A stretch of 64,000 bases of DNA from a virus. The position numbers were made by a program, and so were the translations under genes. Where the stretch lies: positions 1-64,000 of the IMG/VR virus record IMGVR_UViG_3300048113_001121. The stretch is one strand, 5' to 3'. Positions within the stretch are counted from its first letter, which is position 1; every line of letters begins with the position of its first letter. This document shows positions 11,969 through 60,250 of this stretch, one piece after another. The notes under the pieces were generated by a model. That model saw only the letters and a program-made list of their open reading frames with translations. It was not told the origin of the DNA and did not search any database.

Positions 11969-13531
11969 ATGAAGTTCAAAAGATTAATAAATAAAATCTC
12001 AACGATTGAACATAAAATTAATAGCCGAGAAAAGTTAACAGAAGTTAACGTTAATATCTCGCACACTCCCAAACAAATTTTAACAGAAATGAAAAAAATT
12101 GGTATAGAAACATTACCGTACTCTTATTCTGCCTTAGAGAGATTTATAGATTCAGAAACTATGGATACTCACTATAACAAACATTATAAAGGATACGTTA
12201 AGAAATTAAATAATGCATTGTCGAGTAGAGTTGACGGTAACATTGAATTAGAACAATTAATAAGAGGTATTTCACGATACAATAAAACAATTAGAGACAA
12301 TGCGGGCGGAGCATTTAACCACGCACTTTTTTGGAAAATAATGTCACCCAAAAAACAAAGAGCTCAAGGTGAAATTTATGACAAAATAATTAAGGATTTT
12401 GGTAATTTTCCTAAATTCAAAAAAATATTTAGTAATGAGGCAATAAAAAACTTTGGTTCAGGATGGACTTGGTTAGTCTTAACTAAGAATGGTAAATTAA
12501 AAATAATGTCCACCCCAAATCAAGACAACCCATTAATGAATGTGGTTAAAAATGGTGGATACCCATTATTGTGTTTAGATACATGGGAACATGCTTATTA
12601 CTTGAAATACCGTAATAAGAGAGATGAATATGTTAGAAATTTTTGGACAATAATCAATTGGGATTATGTTAATGAATTATATTTAAATCAAACATCAAAA
12701 AAACTAACTGAAACGAAGATAGTTAAAAGTATTATTTCTGAAGGTGCGAGTGCAGGATGTAATAGAAATCAAGTACAGACGTACCGCAGATTATTTAATA
12801 CTAATCCTGAGATAAAAAAACGTTTTATGTATACGATAATGGATATACTAAAAGAAGTATTTTCAGAATATTGGTATGAAAAAAACAAATACTCTAAAGG
12901 TCAAATGTCAGGGATTTATGATTATGAACAAAAAGGTCGCTCAGTGATTAATAAGTTAAATACCAACTACACAGCTTTTTGTACATTAGTGAGTGACACA
13001 AATAAATATTTAAGAAAATATGGTATTGATGCAATTAATTTTAATGATAAAAATCACAAACAACAACTAACTGAAGTTGATAGACTTAACAAATATTTGA
13101 TAGAATTAAGGTACTCTATTTTTAACGCAGATTCACCAACGTTTAAAACTCTAATGTCTGGTTTAGATAAAACAAATAAGTTTGGAGATAAAAGAGAGGT
13201 TGACGCTGTTGTAAGTTTAAAAAAAATATTTAACACTTCTGATGTCAAAAAAGTTGGGGAACTAGGTGACGTAGATGATATGATTAAAGGTATAGACGCA
13301 GTCGTCACATTACCTGAAGGTACTAAAACAATACAAATTAAACCATTTAATCGTATTAATAAAAAAGACGGTAAAGTTATTGTTTACGGTACAGGAAACG
13401 TTAAACCCTATAAAACGGATTATTTAGTTTTTCATAGTGATAAGTTAGGAACTGAAGTTTTTGAGAATAAAAATACTAAAATAGTTAACGGAAGATACGT
13501 TTTTAACGAGTCATCACAATATATTAATTAA
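11969..13531 (+). CDS. Mn-type superoxide dismutase with long C-terminal extension
   Basis: A 520-residue protein whose residues about 48-240 are an unmistakable Fe/Mn superoxide dismutase. LPYSYSALERFI, THYNKHYKGYVKKLNNAL, NAGGAFNHALFW, NFGSGWTWLVL, STPNQDNPLM and DTWEHAYYLKYRNKRDEYV align with E. coli SodA. All four metal ligands are present: His68, His118, Asp204, His208. Gly114 and Gln185 match the Mn-type second-sphere pattern. SOD disproportionates superoxide. A basic N-terminus (1-47) precedes it. The 280-residue C-terminal part has no SOD homology; near its end it has a D ... TIQIKPF pattern that could be a PD-(D/E)xK-like nuclease fold. The gene sits between the helicase and neck gp13 and has a late-type motif, so it may be made late. 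The fusion is unusual. Confidence 0.9.
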   Translation: MKFKRLINKISTIEHKINSREKLTEVNVNISHTPKQILTEMKKIGIETLPYSYSALERFIDSETMDTHYNKHYKGYVKKLNNALSSRVDGNIELEQLIRGISRYNKTIRDNAGGAFNHALFWKIMSPKKQRAQGEIYDKIIKDFGNFPKFKKIFSNEAIKNFGSGWTWLVLTKNGKLKIMSTPNQDNPLMNVVKNGGYPLLCLDTWEHAYYLKYRNKRDEYVRNFWTIINWDYVNELYLNQTSKKLTETKIVKSIISEGASAGCNRNQVQTYRRLFNTNPEIKKRFMYTIMDILKEVFSEYWYEKNKYSKGQMSGIYDYEQKGRSVINKLNTNYTAFCTLVSDTNKYLRKYGIDAINFNDKNHKQQLTEVDRLNKYLIELRYSIFNADSPTFKTLMSGLDKTNKFGDKREVDAVVSLKKIFNTSDVKKVGELGDVDDMIKGIDAVVTLPEGTKTIQIKPFNRINKKDGKVIVYGTGNVKPYKTDYLVFHSDKLGTEVFENKNTKIVNGRYVFNESSQYIN

Positions 13532-38679: not shown

Positions 38680-39387
38680 ATGGCAAGAAAAGGAGAATCG
38701 GGTACACGAAAATTACCAAGAAAAGATTTAATAAATAAAATAATTAATAAAAATCCTAAACAAAAATTTTTATCAGAAAGTCAAAAAGAATATCACGAAA
38801 TATTAAAGGAGAGTGAAATAACAATATGTACAGGACCTGCGGGGGTGGGTAAATCATATATCGCAATGAAAGCTGCGGTAGAACTTTTAATGGACCAAAA
38901 TAACTCTTATGAAAAAATAATCATTGTTAGACCGGCAGTTGAAGCTGAGGAAAAATTAGGAGCATTACCTGGTAATTTAGAAGAAAAACTAGACCCATAT
39001 ATTTTTCCATCGTATTACTTATTAAATAAAATTATAGGTAAAGAGGCTAGAGAAAAATTAAAAGAAAATGATATTATAGAGGTTTTCGCTTTAGCTTATA
39101 TGAGAGGTATGAATATTGATAACTCAATATTAATCTTTGAAGAGGCTCAGAATTCAACACCTTCTCAGATGAAATTACTATTAACTAGAATAGGTTTTAA
39201 TAGTAAATTTTTCATATCAGGCGATATTGACCAAACGGATAGATATAAAGATAAAACACAATCGGGGTTATACGATGCGACAATTAGATTTAAAAATTTA
39301 GACAAAGTTGGCACATATGATTTTAAAACAGACGATATCATCAGAAATCCTTTGATTAGTAAATTATTAGATAGATACGACACATGA
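38680..39387 (+). CDS. phoH: PhoH-like ATPase
   Basis: A 235-residue protein with Walker A TGPAGVGKSYIA (51-62), a Walker B-like LIFEEAQNSTPSQMKLLLTR, and FISGDIDQTDR (sensor 1 region). IIIVRPAVEAEEKLGALPG is the PhoH signature. PhoH proteins are frequent in marine and T4-like phages; RNA helicase/nuclease roles are proposed but unsettled. It overlaps the HAD-like gene by four bases. It lies between sugar genes and the late sigma region. Confidence 0.93.
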   Translation: MARKGESGTRKLPRKDLINKIINKNPKQKFLSESQKEYHEILKESEITICTGPAGVGKSYIAMKAAVELLMDQNNSYEKIIIVRPAVEAEEKLGALPGNLEEKLDPYIFPSYYLLNKIIGKEAREKLKENDIIEVFALAYMRGMNIDNSILIFEEAQNSTPSQMKLLLTRIGFNSKFFISGDIDQTDRYKDKTQSGLYDATIRFKNLDKVGTYDFKTDDIIRNPLISKLLDRYDT

Positions 39388-55706: not shown

Positions 55707-56429
55707 TTAATATCCTAAATAATCGGTTAATTTTTTCATTAAGTCAAGTGATTTGTCTAAACCTTTTTCAGGTTCACCATTTACACTTCTTTGTTTTGTC
55801 TCTTCTTCAATGTTCTCATCGTACTTCATTCTATCATCTTGATTAAGGAATAAGTAAGCTCCTGGTGTTGATGGTGAAGATACTAAATCAAAACAAATTA
55901 ATTCAAAATCGTCCTGCACTTCATTCCTTTCACCTTTTTTAACTAAAGAACCTACACCACGAGATGATACCCCCATAGTGACTCCCTGTCTCATAAGATT
56001 TGCCGCTTGGTCTCCTGGACATGATACAACACCTGTTTTATGAAAACCTGGTGATGTCAATAATTTTATTTTACCCATTAGAACATTACCTTCCCACCAC
56101 ATATCAGTTATCAAGTGTGATACACGGTCTAAGTCGATAAGTGACGATTCAGGGTGATTAAGTTCTGATATCGATAATCCTTTCTTTATTGCCTCTTGGT
56201 ATTTTTCACCTTCTCTCCTTAATATTGATTCGGGATATATTCTACCGTTTCTATTTGGTGTGTCGTATTTTTGTAATACTGCGTAAAACTCAAAAGGTTT
56301 AGAATGGTCTAATTGACCGTATGATTCTTTTATAATATCGGCGTTACGTTTATCGTTTGGGTTTATAAAACCGGCATCCCACTCAATTAAAATCCCTTTA
56401 CCCGTATCATTTGGTCCTAATATTTTCAT
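55707..56429 (-). CDS. 21: Prohead core protease, gp21-like
   Basis: A 240-residue serine-type protease of the T4 gp21 family. YDTPNRNGRIYPESIL, ISELNHPESSLIDLDRVSHLI (catalytic His in NHP), TMGVSSRGVGSL (catalytic Ser in VSSRG) and DFELICFDLVSSPSTPGAY are diagnostic. It cleaves capsid, scaffold and core proteins at [IL]-x-E sites during maturation. It is followed by the DUF4494-like gene and then gp22 and gp23. TATTTATA lies 11 bases before the ATG. Confidence 0.95.
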   Translation of the reverse strand: MKILGPNDTGKGILIEWDAGFINPNDKRNADIIKESYGQLDHSKPFEFYAVLQKYDTPNRNGRIYPESILRREGEKYQEAIKKGLSISELNHPESSLIDLDRVSHLITDMWWEGNVLMGKIKLLTSPGFHKTGVVSCPGDQAANLMRQGVTMGVSSRGVGSLVKKGERNEVQDDFELICFDLVSSPSTPGAYLFLNQDDRMKYDENIEEETKQRSVNGEPEKGLDKSLDLMKKLTDYLGY

Positions 56430-56440
56430 ATCTTTTATTT

Positions 56441-56448
56441 TATAAATA
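56441..56448 (-). promoter_or_regulatory. Late-promoter-like motif before protease gene
   Basis: Sense TATTTATAAAATAAAAG, 11 bases before ATG 56429. Lies 8 bases after the end of the preceding gene. Confidence 0.4.
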
Positions 56449-56456
56449 TGCTACGT

Positions 56457-56843
56457 TTAGTATTCCATCGAGATAAAAACGTCCCATTCACTTATTCTAA
56501 TTGGAGTTACTCTTAATAATTGGTTTATTTTGTCACTAACGAATATCTTATATTCTGTTGTTAAAACAGAATCGTCACCTTCTCCTGAGAAAAAAACGTA
56601 GTTATTCGCGAAGTCTGTAACTTCCTGTCCTTTATAAATTACTTTACCAATTTCAACCCGAACACTTATATCTTCGTCTTGAATATCACCTTCTATCATA
56701 ACACTACTTGGTAAAATAAAAGTATCCCCATAACCAAATTCATATATAAATTTTTTAGGGTCTATAAGATTATTAAGATTATCTACAAGCGTATTTGCTT
56801 CAAATAATCTTAATAATTGACTTTCATTAATTACGACTTTCAT
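56457..56843 (-). CDS. Hypothetical protein with INESQL N-terminus
   Basis: A 128-residue protein: MKVVINESQLLRLFEANTLV, a beta-rich middle (SSVMIEGDIQDEDISVRVEI) and VTPIRISEWDVFISMEY at the end. The opening resembles the peptides at 4309 and 48653. It lies in the head-gene cluster between protease and the 145-residue gene. LFE-A would be a plausible gp21 site, so it may be a core or internal head protein; this is inference. Confidence 0.65.
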   Translation of the reverse strand: MKVVINESQLLRLFEANTLVDNLNNLIDPKKFIYEFGYGDTFILPSSVMIEGDIQDEDISVRVEIGKVIYKGQEVTDFANNYVFFSGEGDDSVLTTEYKIFVSDKINQLLRVTPIRISEWDVFISMEY

Positions 56844-56857
56844 TTAGTTGTTTTAAC

Positions 56858-56865
56858 TATAAATA
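56858..56865 (-). promoter_or_regulatory. Late-promoter-like motif before INESQL gene
   Basis: Sense TATTTATAGTTAAAAC, 14 bases before ATG 56843, just before the end of the upstream gene. Confidence 0.4.
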
Positions 56866-56867
56866 GA

Positions 56868-57305
56868 TTAAACAGACTGTTTTTTAGTTTTATGTAGTAT
56901 AAAATATTTTGATTTCATTAACGGATACCCATATAATGTATTAACTATTTGTTTTATCCTGTCTCTAAGTATCAACGATTTAAAGTCTATTTGTTCTTTT
57001 ACAAATAATGTTACCTCTAAATTCATAAAACTTCTTTTACCTAATTGTATACCACTACTTCTTAAATCTAAATCGACTATGTTATGTTTTTCAAATAATA
57101 ACGGGTCCACCGATTCTAATAAGTGATGTTTAATGTCCCTCTCTAACATACCTGTCGTTCTAACCCAATTATGAGCCGTCATTGTTGGTTCCACCCAACT
57201 TTGTATGAGAATATAAACTGATTTTAATTTTTTTGCATCTACTGTTCCATAACTACATTTCGCGTTTTCGTATCCCGTTAATTGGGACGTTTTTCCTTTT
57301 TTCAT
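56868..57305 (-). CDS. Hypothetical protein of head cluster
   Basis: A 145-residue basic protein. SQLTGYENAKCSYGTVDAKK then SVYILIQSWVEPTMTAHNWV and HHLLESVDPLLFEKHNIVDL form a mixed alpha/beta pattern, followed by RSFMNLEVTLFVKEQ and a basic C-terminus. It is preceded by an early-type promoter and lies divergent to bS21. Unusual for a head-cluster gene, it has no late motif, so it may be made early. No family recognised. Confidence 0.6.
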   Translation of the reverse strand: MKKGKTSQLTGYENAKCSYGTVDAKKLKSVYILIQSWVEPTMTAHNWVRTTGMLERDIKHHLLESVDPLLFEKHNIVDLDLRSSGIQLGKRSFMNLEVTLFVKEQIDFKSLILRDRIKQIVNTLYGYPLMKSKYFILHKTKKQSV

Positions 57306-57376: not shown

Positions 57377-57404
57377 TTGATAAGTTGAATATATTTATTA
57401 TAAT
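57377..57404 (+). promoter_or_regulatory. Promoter of bS21 gene
   Basis: TTGATA-N16-TATAAT lies just before the bS21 ATG at 57414. The start site would fall only 3-5 bases before the ATG, giving a nearly leaderless mRNA. It overlaps the divergent promoter region. Confidence 0.45.
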
Positions 57405-57413
57405 AAGTCATAT

Positions 57414-57605
57414 ATGTTAATAATAGAAATAGGAAAAAAAGAAAATATCGAAAGAGCCTTAAAAAGGTATAAGAATAAAGTTTATAAGACTAAACAGTTG
57501 AATAGGCTTCGAGAGGAAAAAGAGTTTACTAAGAAGTCTACTAAGAGACGTAAACAAAAACAAAAAGCCATTTATATCCAAAAAATAAAGGATTCAGAAA
57601 TCTGA
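57414..57605 (+). CDS. rpsU: Ribosomal protein bS21
   Basis: A 63-residue basic protein: MLIIEIGKKENIERALKRYK is the bS21 start (N-x-x-x-A-L-K-R-Y/F), followed by a Lys/Arg-rich helix and RKQKQKAIYIQKIKDSEI. The length matches Bacteroidota bS21 (about 63-65 aa). Tyr54, in AIYIQK, is the position implicated in masking the anti-Shine-Dalgarno sequence in Bacteroidia ribosomes. Phage bS21 can replace the host copy on the 30S subunit and may bias translation initiation. It stands alone on the plus strand inside the minus-strand head module, with its own promoter and terminator. The stop is embedded in the terminator stem. Confidence 0.9.
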   Translation: MLIIEIGKKENIERALKRYKNKVYKTKQLNRLREEKEFTKKSTKRRKQKQKAIYIQKIKDSEI

Positions 57606-57612
57606 ACCCTTT
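57587..57612 (+). terminator. Terminator of bS21 gene
   Basis: TTCAGA / TCTGAA core stem with a lower stem of G and A pairs, one mismatch, followed by a T run. The bS21 stop codon TGA lies in the stem. Confidence 0.75.
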
Positions 57613-57638
57613 TTTTATTTTATATATGTAATTTAAAG

Positions 57639-58373
57639 TTATAAACCGTGTTCTAATTGTTTTAACTTATAAAGTGAAGTTAATGAAATTTCGGACTCAT
57701 TAATATGACTTATAGTCTGATTTACTTTTTCATGTAAATCTTCATCATTCGATTCATTAATTTTTTCAGTTAATTTTTCTAATACAATACTTTTAGAATT
57801 TACAATCTCTTCAGCTAATTCAGTTTTAGAGAGTGATAAAAGAGCCTTTAATTCTTTTTTATCTTCCTCACTGATATCACCATATTCCTTATTAAATGTG
57901 TTTGTTGCTATTTTTAACATAGAACTTAAAGGAATGTTAACTGATTCGTTAATTTTCACATCATCTTTATTTTCACCTAATAACTTTTTTATATTATTTT
58001 TACACTCTAAAACTTCTTCTAAGTTTCTAACCGAGTTATTATAAACTACAGTATCAATATCGGTATAGTTGTTATCTGAATTATTTTTTAATCCTTCAGA
58101 AACCCACATATTAATTTCTTTAATTTTTTTATCCTCAGTAGTTAATATATCTTTTATTGTTTCAATACATTCATTTACGTAGTCATCAACAATTTCTTTG
58201 GATAAACCTTTTTTATTGGAAAGTTCATCATAAAGAAAATATGCTTCAGCAAGTTTCTCGTTCTCAATTACATGATTTTTAAATGACTTCATATTGGTTT
58301 TAAAAGAATTTTTACCATATGACTTAGTCATTAAAGATTCTATATTTGATTTTATTTGTCCGAATTTATTCAT
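57639..58373 (-). CDS. Prohead core-like helical protein (gp67/68 position)
   Basis: A 244-residue highly helical, charged protein directly after portal gp20. T4 order is 20-67-68-21-22-23, so the slot corresponds to core proteins gp67/68. Features: long amphipathic helices (LFYDELSNKKG region, KSIVLEKLTEKINESNDEDL) and a LAE-A site in EKLAEAYF compatible with gp21 cleavage. No sequence similarity to T4 gp67/68 is evident by eye; the call is positional. TATTTATA lies 12 bases before the ATG. Confidence 0.5.
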   Translation of the reverse strand: MNKFGQIKSNIESLMTKSYGKNSFKTNMKSFKNHVIENEKLAEAYFLYDELSNKKGLSKEIVDDYVNECIETIKDILTTEDKKIKEINMWVSEGLKNNSDNNYTDIDTVVYNNSVRNLEEVLECKNNIKKLLGENKDDVKINESVNIPLSSMLKIATNTFNKEYGDISEEDKKELKALLSLSKTELAEEIVNSKSIVLEKLTEKINESNDEDLHEKVNQTISHINESEISLTSLYKLKQLEHGL

Positions 58374-58385
58374 AACGTTTTTTAT

Positions 58386-58393
58386 TATAAATA
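58386..58393 (-). promoter_or_regulatory. Late-promoter-like motif at the end of portal gene
   Basis: Sense TATTTATAATAAAAAA, abutting the portal stop and 12 bases before ATG 58373. Confidence 0.4.
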
Positions 58394-60250
58394 TTAGTCA
58401 TCTAGTAATGTTCTTAGTTCATCTTCAATTTTACCTAAAGAATCTCTCCCTTTCGATAAGTCAATTTCGGATATACCATTAATCATATCATTTTCTAATA
58501 TCATATTTAAATCTTTTTCTGAAGTACTTTCAGGTGTAACCTCAGCCGTAGTGTCACCACCCGTATCTGTACCACTATCACCTAAATCACTACCTAAATC
58601 ACCACCTAAATCACCACCTAAGTCGCCTCCAAAATCACTTCCACCACCACCAAATCCGGTGTCAGAAGGTTCTGTAACCTCACCTTCAGGTGCGCCACCT
58701 TCTCCAGGTTTATCACCATATAATTTATCGATGTTTGCAAATATTCCTGTTTTAGTAATTGTTTCAGGTGTTTTTTCAAGTTCCGCTCCAACAGCCTTTT
58801 CGATTCTTTGTTGTTGTAAATCTAATTTAATTTCTTCATCTGAGAAACCAAGAATATGTTTTTTAGCCCAAGAAGATGAAACAGGTTGTATACCATTACC
58901 TGGGTCAGAAACCGCATCACGGTAAAGAGCAACTTTTTGTTGCCATTGTTCAACTTTAAGTAAGTCCGCTTGTGTTGATGGGTTAGTAAGACCTAATGTA
59001 AAATTATTTAATTCGTCTTCAAAACCTAATAGATACAAATGTATTATAGCAATTTTATTTAACTCTTGAATCATAGATTTTTGAATTCTATTGATTGTAC
59101 GAGCGAATCTTATATCTTGTAACGCTAAGTTTTTACCATCACCAACAACCTCTTCAAACCCTAAAAATGCTTTAGGTACTCTAAGTGCAGTTAATAATTT
59201 CTTTTGTATATATTCAATATCAGCAATTTCTGATAAGTTTTGTGCTCCTGGTAATGTGTCGATAGGGTTAGGTGCGTTAGCGTCTCTAACGGGTATGAAG
59301 TAATCTTGGTCAACCGCCATTTGATTATATCTTAAATCGACATTACCGTTATTAGAGTCCACAATTTGGTCTCTTTTAAATTTGTTAGCAACTCTCTGTA
59401 CGTAAGGTTCGACATCTTTGTCATCCATGTTACCTACAAAAACTTTGAATACTCGTCTTTCAGGTGCTCTTGATGTTCTATAAACTAACATAGCATCTTC
59501 AGATAAAATAAGTTGTTTCCATATTCTTCTTGCCTTTTCTAACATAGAAGTACCATAAGGTAATTTACGGTCATCACCTAATAATCTAAAGTGAGCCACT
59601 TCCCACGTATTTAATACCATATCTTTATTTTGCCATAAGAATTTTAAAGCATCGTTATCGGTATCTGTACTATTTTTTTCAGGTTTAATTTTCATTCCTC
59701 GTTCTTGACGAGTAATTTCAATATTAGGTAGTTGTTGTACCCCCATAACCCCTTTCTCAGGGTCTAATTTTAGATAAACGAAGTTATCCCCATACTTACA
59801 AGTATTTCTTGTCCACATAGGTAGATTAGTACTAATATCGAGTCTATTGTTAAATAAATCCCCAAGTACTGATTTAATTCGTTTACTTTCTGAGTAAATT
59901 TGTAATATATATCCATCTTCATTCGCAGTTGTTGATTCTTCCCCATATATATCTAACGCCGCAGATATTTCGGGCGTATATTCCATACTTTCATAATCAT
60001 AAAATGAAGCTAGTCTAGTCGGTTCATAATATACCGCTTGAGTATATAAGTTGTTCTCTACCTTCTGCCATTGTTGACCAAGATAGAGTGTTTGTTGGGC
60101 TTGAAGTTTTTCTCTCTCATACTCCTTTTTATCGGGAGTCTTTAAAAGTTCTTTCTTATCAAACTTAAATACGGGAGCTTGTTGGTCTAACGTTGAGTCA
60201 GGACCAAATACCTTAGTAAGTCGTTGCCATATAGTATAATTTTCTGCCAT
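58394..60250 (-). CDS. 20: Portal protein, gp20-like
   Basis: A 618-residue portal protein (T4 gp20 524 aa). T4-type features: VYYEPTRLASFYDYESMEYTPEISAALDIYGEES, NRLDISTNLPMWTRNTCKYGDNFVYLKLDPE, MVLNTWEVAHFRLLGDDRKLPYGTSMLE and YRTSRAPERRVFKVFVGNMD-type strands. A Gly/Asp-rich low-complexity tail (about 560-590, repeats of GGDLGGDLGG) extends beyond the family core. Twelve copies form the vertex ring for DNA packaging and neck attachment. TATTTATC is 12 bases before its ATG. Confidence 0.93.
   Translation of the reverse strand: MAENYTIWQRLTKVFGPDSTLDQQAPVFKFDKKELLKTPDKKEYEREKLQAQQTLYLGQQWQKVENNLYTQAVYYEPTRLASFYDYESMEYTPEISAALDIYGEESTTANEDGYILQIYSESKRIKSVLGDLFNNRLDISTNLPMWTRNTCKYGDNFVYLKLDPEKGVMGVQQLPNIEITRQERGMKIKPEKNSTDTDNDALKFLWQNKDMVLNTWEVAHFRLLGDDRKLPYGTSMLEKARRIWKQLILSEDAMLVYRTSRAPERRVFKVFVGNMDDKDVEPYVQRVANKFKRDQIVDSNNGNVDLRYNQMAVDQDYFIPVRDANAPNPIDTLPGAQNLSEIADIEYIQKKLLTALRVPKAFLGFEEVVGDGKNLALQDIRFARTINRIQKSMIQELNKIAIIHLYLLGFEDELNNFTLGLTNPSTQADLLKVEQWQQKVALYRDAVSDPGNGIQPVSSSWAKKHILGFSDEEIKLDLQQQRIEKAVGAELEKTPETITKTGIFANIDKLYGDKPGEGGAPEGEVTEPSDTGFGGGGSDFGGDLGGDLGGDLGSDLGDSGTDTGGDTTAEVTPESTSEKDLNMILENDMINGISEIDLSKGRDSLGKIEDELRTLLDD

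What the first reader, a model, noticed from the sequence alone, without database searches (positions are those of the whole stretch)
57414..57605. bS21 with Tyr54 in an SD-poor phage: possible tuning of Bacteroidota ribosomes
The phage encodes bS21 of 63 residues with Tyr at position 54, the residue that contacts the masked anti-SD in Bacteroidia ribosomes. Most genes here lack SD sequences. Replacement of host bS21 could either keep or alter SD masking in favour of phage mRNAs. The gene is isolated on the opposite strand with its own promoter and terminator in the head module, suggesting separate timing.
Basis: partly seen in the sequence, partly recalled or inferred. Interest (0 to 1): 0.75.

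Follow-up and report, generated by a model that had tools for sequence, protein, structure and literature searches.

The report
Phage bS21 lacking host-style Shine-Dalgarno
This marine phage of Bacteroidota-type bacteria carries its own copy of ribosomal protein bS21, a phage gene class already described in 2022; what is new here is that the phage copies lack the control sequence that the host uses to sense and limit its own bS21, so the phage could supply the protein while the host's own supply is held down.

Summary
Window 57414-57605 (+) encodes a 63-residue bS21 (PF01165, 38 bits); its Tyr54 aligns without gaps with Tyr54 of F. johnsoniae bS21 (7JIL). It sits on the strand opposite to a T4-type head module. 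This gene class, its location, its Tyr54 and the 'keeps the ASD masked' reading were published by Chen et al. 2022 (PMC9723584), so it is a marine member of a known kind. 'Separate timing' is not supported: bS21 has the same TATTTAT[AT] promoter-like motif as three neighbouring head-region genes, and its terminator hairpin is shared with the convergent gene.

What I add: (1) host rpsU carries an extended Shine-Dalgarno through which bS21 limits its own synthesis (McNutt 2023). All but one of 64 distinct phage bS21 proteins lack it; the exception branches beside host rpsU. (2) About 45% of sampled Flavobacteriaceae genomes carry an extra bS21 gene; those read were SD-less, like the phage's, while SD+ rpsU lies apart in the tree.

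Best model, inferred: a late, SD-independent, ASD-masking bS21 keeps 30S subunits complete for SD-less phage mRNAs and holds host rpsU repressed. No infection or ribosome data exist for this phage.

The parts
57414..57605 (+). phage bS21 gene, 63 aa
   Evidence: PF01165 38 bits; ungapped alignment to 7JIL bS21
57573..57575 (+). codon of Tyr54, the anti-SD stacking residue
   Evidence: alignment; residue role from PMC9723584 and PMC9976891
57389..57413 (+). initiation region without Shine-Dalgarno (+0.1 kcal/mol with the 16S tail; host rpsU -17 to -21)
57392..57399 (+). TATTTATT, putative phage late-promoter element of bS21
   Evidence: motif enriched upstream of phage genes, 55 of 230 against 8.7 in shuffles; present in 29 of 34 distinct close phage bS21 genes
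57587..57622 (.). bidirectional terminator hairpin with T runs on both sides, shared by bS21 and the convergent gene
56868..57305 (-). divergent neighbour, 145 aa, unknown function, conserved beside bS21 in related phages
   Evidence: model pLDDT 87, no significant PDB fold match
57639..58373 (-). convergent neighbour, 244 aa, unknown function, conserved beside bS21; carries the same promoter-like motif at 58386-58393
58394..60250 (-). portal protein (T4 gp20 type)
   Evidence: PF07230
60299..62071 (-). terminase large subunit
   Evidence: PF03237, PHROG 2
56457..56843 (-). 128 aa gene with the same promoter-like motif at 56858-56865
55707..56429 (-). prohead protease, with the same promoter-like motif at 56441-56448
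   Evidence: PF03420; motif

Best explanation
The gene makes a phage version of Bacteroidia-type bS21. It is probably transcribed late, with the head genes, and translated without a Shine-Dalgarno. The protein would join 30S subunits that lack bS21 and, through Tyr54, keep the anti-SD tail tucked away. This keeps ribosomes in the SD-blind state that SD-less mRNAs, including nearly all phage mRNAs, need. Because bS21-replete ribosomes translate the extended-SD host rpsU mRNA poorly, phage bS21 should also hold host bS21 synthesis down, while its own synthesis escapes that feedback. Shown: the gene, Tyr54, absence of an SD in the phage copies, extended SD in most host rpsU, phage initiation sites of Bacteroidia type, a motif shared with head-region genes, purifying selection. 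Inferred: incorporation into ribosomes, exchange with host bS21, late timing, repression of host rpsU.
For: Tyr54 aligned to 7JIL and kept in 62 of 64 phage proteins. All but one of 64 distinct phage bS21 lack an SD, whereas host rpsU pairs at -17 to -21 kcal/mol. In F. johnsoniae, bS21 loss or Y54A raises rpsU translation, and loss of the bS21 C-terminus lowers initiation on SD-less mRNAs (PMC9976891). Phage genes show no SD signal and have Bacteroidia-type adenines. Shared motif with head-region genes and late co-expression in related phages (PMC9723584). A pelagiphage bS21 enters E. coli ribosomes (PMC6375957). Purifying selection.
Against: No direct data for this phage or host. SD absence is also the default for phage genes here, so it need not be an adaptation. 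Late supply may come too late to matter for host rpsU if host mRNA is already gone. Ribosomes carrying pelagiphage bS21 were about 5% active in an E. coli system. The phage C-terminal region differs from the host's at several positions.
Confidence: 0.5

Rival explanations
1. Altered mRNA choice: phage bS21 replaces host bS21 and, through its different 21-28 segment near the mRNA path (V23, K27, Q28), makes ribosomes prefer phage mRNAs. This is the hypothesis of Chen et al. 2022.
For: Phage proteins have V23 (58 of 64), K27 (63 of 64) and Q28 (58 of 64), whereas SD+ host rpsU has F23 and mostly G27 and T28; Chen et al. flag positions 21, 23, 25 and 28.
Against: SD-less chromosomal paralogues also have K or Q at 27, so part of the 'phage' signature is not phage-specific. 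Phage initiation sites look like host ones, leaving no obvious feature to select on.
Confidence: 0.25
2. Plain supply: late in infection host bS21 runs short, and the phage copy simply tops it up. Missing SD and feedback escape have no special meaning.
For: bS21 is loosely bound and exchangeable (PMC6375957); the phage TIR resembles its other genes.
Against: Tyr54 retention implies masking and hence repression of host rpsU in any case. This rival differs from the best model only in whether that effect matters.
Confidence: 0.2
3. The protein is packaged in the virion or has a role outside the ribosome, for example in head assembly.
For: Position inside the head module; packaging was raised as a possibility in PMC9723584.
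Against: Residues K40, R46 and K51 are invariant and Tyr54 nearly so across phage and host bS21, which argues for a ribosomal role. No packaging data.
Confidence: 0.05

Closest known systems
bS21-encoding Bacteroidetes myophages (Chen et al. 2022, PMC9723584)
   Same: bS21 of Bacteroidetes type with Tyr54, on the strand opposite to TerL, portal, protease and capsid genes, between two conserved hypothetical genes; PhoH, Clp protease and tRNAs present.
   Different: Apparently a marine rather than freshwater lineage; contig of 198.8 kb against complete genomes of 293-331 kb. The missing SD was not discussed in the parts of that paper read here.
Autoregulated rpsU of Flavobacteriales (McNutt et al. 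2023, PMC9976891)
   Same: Protein family, length and Tyr54.
   Different: The phage gene has no extended SD and so lacks the feedback element.
SD-less second bS21 of marine Flavobacteriaceae chromosomes (seen here, e.g. L078, L116)
   Same: No SD; K or Q at position 27; same side of the tree as phage copies.
   Different: Chromosomal, in non-phage gene contexts; mostly H23 and R24 instead of V23.
Pelagibacter phage HTVC008M bS21 (Mizuno et al. 2019, PMC6375957)
   Same: Phage-borne bS21; shown to enter E. coli ribosomes.
   Different: Proteobacterial host and bS21 type.

Membership tests
bS21 (PF01165) | profile match above the curated cut-off | tested here: met
   38 bits against 27
Bacteroidia-type bS21 | Tyr at position 54 contacting the anti-SD tail | tested here: met
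   ungapped alignment to 7JIL
Bacteroidia-type bS21 | incorporation into 30S and masking of the anti-SD | not testable with these tools
   needs ribosome purification or structure
bS21 phages of Chen et al. 2022 | bS21 on the strand opposite to the head genes, with TerL, portal and protease within about five genes | tested here: met
bS21 phages of Chen et al. 2022 | bS21 between two conserved hypothetical families | tested here: met
   145 aa and 244 aa neighbours conserved across phage contigs; identity with their families not checked
bS21 phages of Chen et al. 2022 | PhoH gene | tested here: met
   38773-39378, 214 bits
bS21 phages of Chen et al. 2022 | TerL about 70% or more similar to theirs | not tested
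   no search of their genomes was made; nearest annotated phage TerL in the collection searched is 26% identical
Autoregulated rpsU | extended SD below about -13 kcal/mol before the start codon | tested here: not met
   +0.1 kcal/mol

The most novel reading that the evidence does not exclude
Bacteroidota phages use an SD-free, Tyr54-keeping bS21 to disable the host's bS21 sensor: the phage protein fills the 30S subunits that would otherwise translate the extended-SD host rpsU, silencing host bS21 supply while the phage gene is immune to that feedback. SD-less chromosomal bS21 paralogues would be a related, host-owned form of the same escape.
Probability: 0.3. Interest if true: 0.7.

Novelty: new member of a known kind. 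Interest (0 to 1): 0.45.

Why it matters
Bacteroidota ribosomes hide the anti-SD, and in Flavobacteriales rpsU is typically the one gene that clearly uses it, as a sensor of missing bS21. McNutt et al. proposed that this sensor could counter phages that displace bS21. That phage copies lack the sensor sequence but keep the masking residue suggests how phages could blunt that counter-measure, and makes the question directly testable in F. johnsoniae with published reporter designs.

Tried and rejected
Separate timing of bS21: rejected in favour of the shared motif. Sigma70-type promoters near the gene: as many as chance gives (12 against 11.9). SD depletion in the phage genome: fewer than in mock windows, but not below composition once the same windows are shuffled. 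RNA family in the region: none. Identity of the divergent 145 aa neighbour: good model, but no significant PDB fold match (best hit YbjN, TM below 0.5) and only an uncharacterised phage protein matches well; no relative in annotated phages by sequence. bS21 in annotated phages: a single partial hit, LR756502. Three phage sequences that seemed to have Lys54 carry a one-residue insertion near the N-terminus; their Tyr aligns. The contact-residue list of the F. johnsoniae structure paper was not held.

Full report
Observation. The + strand ORF 57414-57605 encodes MLIIEIGKKENIERALKRYKNKVYKTKQLNRLREEKEFTKKSTKRRKQKQKAIYIQKIKDSEI, a bS21 by Pfam (38 bits, cut-off 27). It aligns without gaps to F. johnsoniae bS21 of structure 7JIL, Tyr54 on Tyr54. 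The record is a 198.8 kb virus contig with one bS21.

Known context. Chen et al. 2022 (PMC9723584; [quoted passage not shown] They noted Tyr54 (54 of 61, the rest aromatic), argued that masking is kept, and found bS21 transcripts together with those of structural genes. The present locus has the same arrangement: divergent 145 aa gene, bS21, convergent 244 aa gene, portal, TerL. Order and orientation are conserved across the phage contigs fetched, in which TerL identity falls to about 60%. PhoH, a ClpP-type protease and six tRNAs are also present. So the finding, including its interpretation, is largely published already.

Host-type initiation. Over 193 phage genes, the number with predicted anti-SD pairing of -6 kcal/mol or better (12) equals that of dinucleotide shuffles (12.5), so there is no SD signal; adenine is raised at -3 and -11 to -13 and slightly at -6. 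McNutt et al. 2023 (PMC9976891) list adenines at -3, -6, -12 and -13 as initiation determinants in Bacteroidia. The host is inferred to be a Bacteroidota, probably marine Flavobacteriaceae: the nearest chromosomal bS21 hits are in Lutibacter, Psychroserpens, Muricauda, Lacinutrix and relatives, and the nearest annotated phage TerL is from Flavobacterium phages, at only 26%.

The missing SD. In most host rpsU the region before the ATG pairs with the 16S tail at about -17 to -21 kcal/mol. The tail sequence was read from one host genome. McNutt et al. showed that this extended SD lets ribosomes lacking bS21 make more bS21. In 64 distinct phage bS21 proteins the best pairing is weaker than -5 kcal/mol in all but one, L324 at -9.7; the window's gene has +0.1. 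L324 branches beside SD+ host rpsU, as expected of a recent capture or of host contamination. The phage gene is therefore outside the known feedback. Since Tyr54 is kept, its product should mask the anti-SD and so repress host rpsU. McNutt et al. suggested that the host feedback could be a counter-defence; the make-up of the phage gene would blunt it. This last step is inference.

A second host bS21. In 151 genomes drawn from the family of a Lacinutrix genome, 62 had two and 6 had three bS21 genes. In genomes where two copies were read, one was an SD+ rpsU and the other SD-less in nearly all cases. The SD+ copy read in detail precedes a tyrosine recombinase gene and an hpf-like gene; SD-less ones lie in several non-phage contexts. 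In maximum-likelihood trees SD+ rpsU forms one side of a branch (95/92; 97/73 with more phages), with phage and SD-less host copies on the other, L324 apart. With 64 columns the order within that side is unresolved, so the direction of transfer is open. McNutt et al. list extra bS21 copies in other phyla but not in Bacteroidota, and a literature search for Bacteroidota paralogues found no report, within the library held.

Transcription. TATTTAT[AT] lies within 45 nt upstream of 55 of 230 genes against 8.7 in shuffles (maximum 19), with peaks 10-15 and 20-25 nt before the ATG; the reverse complement occurs in 24 of the same windows, partly because of divergent genes (the cause of the 24 was not tested). 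The motif precedes bS21 (-22), the protease (-19), the 128 aa gene (-22) and the 244 aa gene (-20), and is present in 29 of 34 distinct close phage bS21 genes. It looks like a phage late-promoter element; this is unproven. The hairpin at 57587-57612 has T runs on both strands and can end both bS21 and the convergent gene.

Selection. dN/dS is roughly 0.04-0.2 against relatives, with dS near saturation.

Verdict. Real and maintained; a new member of a known kind. The added value is the SD contrast with host rpsU and the SD-less chromosomal paralogues, which together give a sharp, testable model.

Noticed in passing
L078, L080, L085, L116, L217, L218, L220 and others (Flavobacteriaceae chromosomes): About 45% of sampled Flavobacteriaceae genomes carry a second or third bS21 gene; those read lack a Shine-Dalgarno, unlike canonical rpsU, and sit in non-phage contexts. 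I found no report of this in the library searched.
   Followed up: partly
G000 whole contig, e.g. window 57392-57399, 56441-56448, 58386-58393: A TATTTAT[AT] motif is enriched upstream of about a quarter of the phage genes, in two distance classes (10-15 and 20-25 nt before the ATG); the nearer class would imply very short leaders or leaderless mRNAs. Freshwater relatives show TATTTGTA at the same place.
   Followed up: partly
G000:C1:110121-110792 (L153 6121-6792): Phage ClpP-type protease with an apparently intact Ser/His region, a candidate for the bS21-removing protease that McNutt et al. speculated about.
   Followed up: no
window 56868-57305 (-): Conserved 145 aa protein divergent from bS21; confident predicted fold, similar to an uncharacterised myovirus protein (A0A8S5L9A5, TM 0.79) and weakly to YbjN; function unknown.
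   Followed up: partly
window 11969-13531 (+): 520 aa phage protein that begins with a full iron/manganese superoxide dismutase (PF00081, PF02777), with a long extra C-terminal part.
   Followed up: no
L324: The one viral-contig bS21 with a moderate SD (-9.7 kcal/mol) and a host-like sequence: recent capture or host contamination.
   Followed up: no
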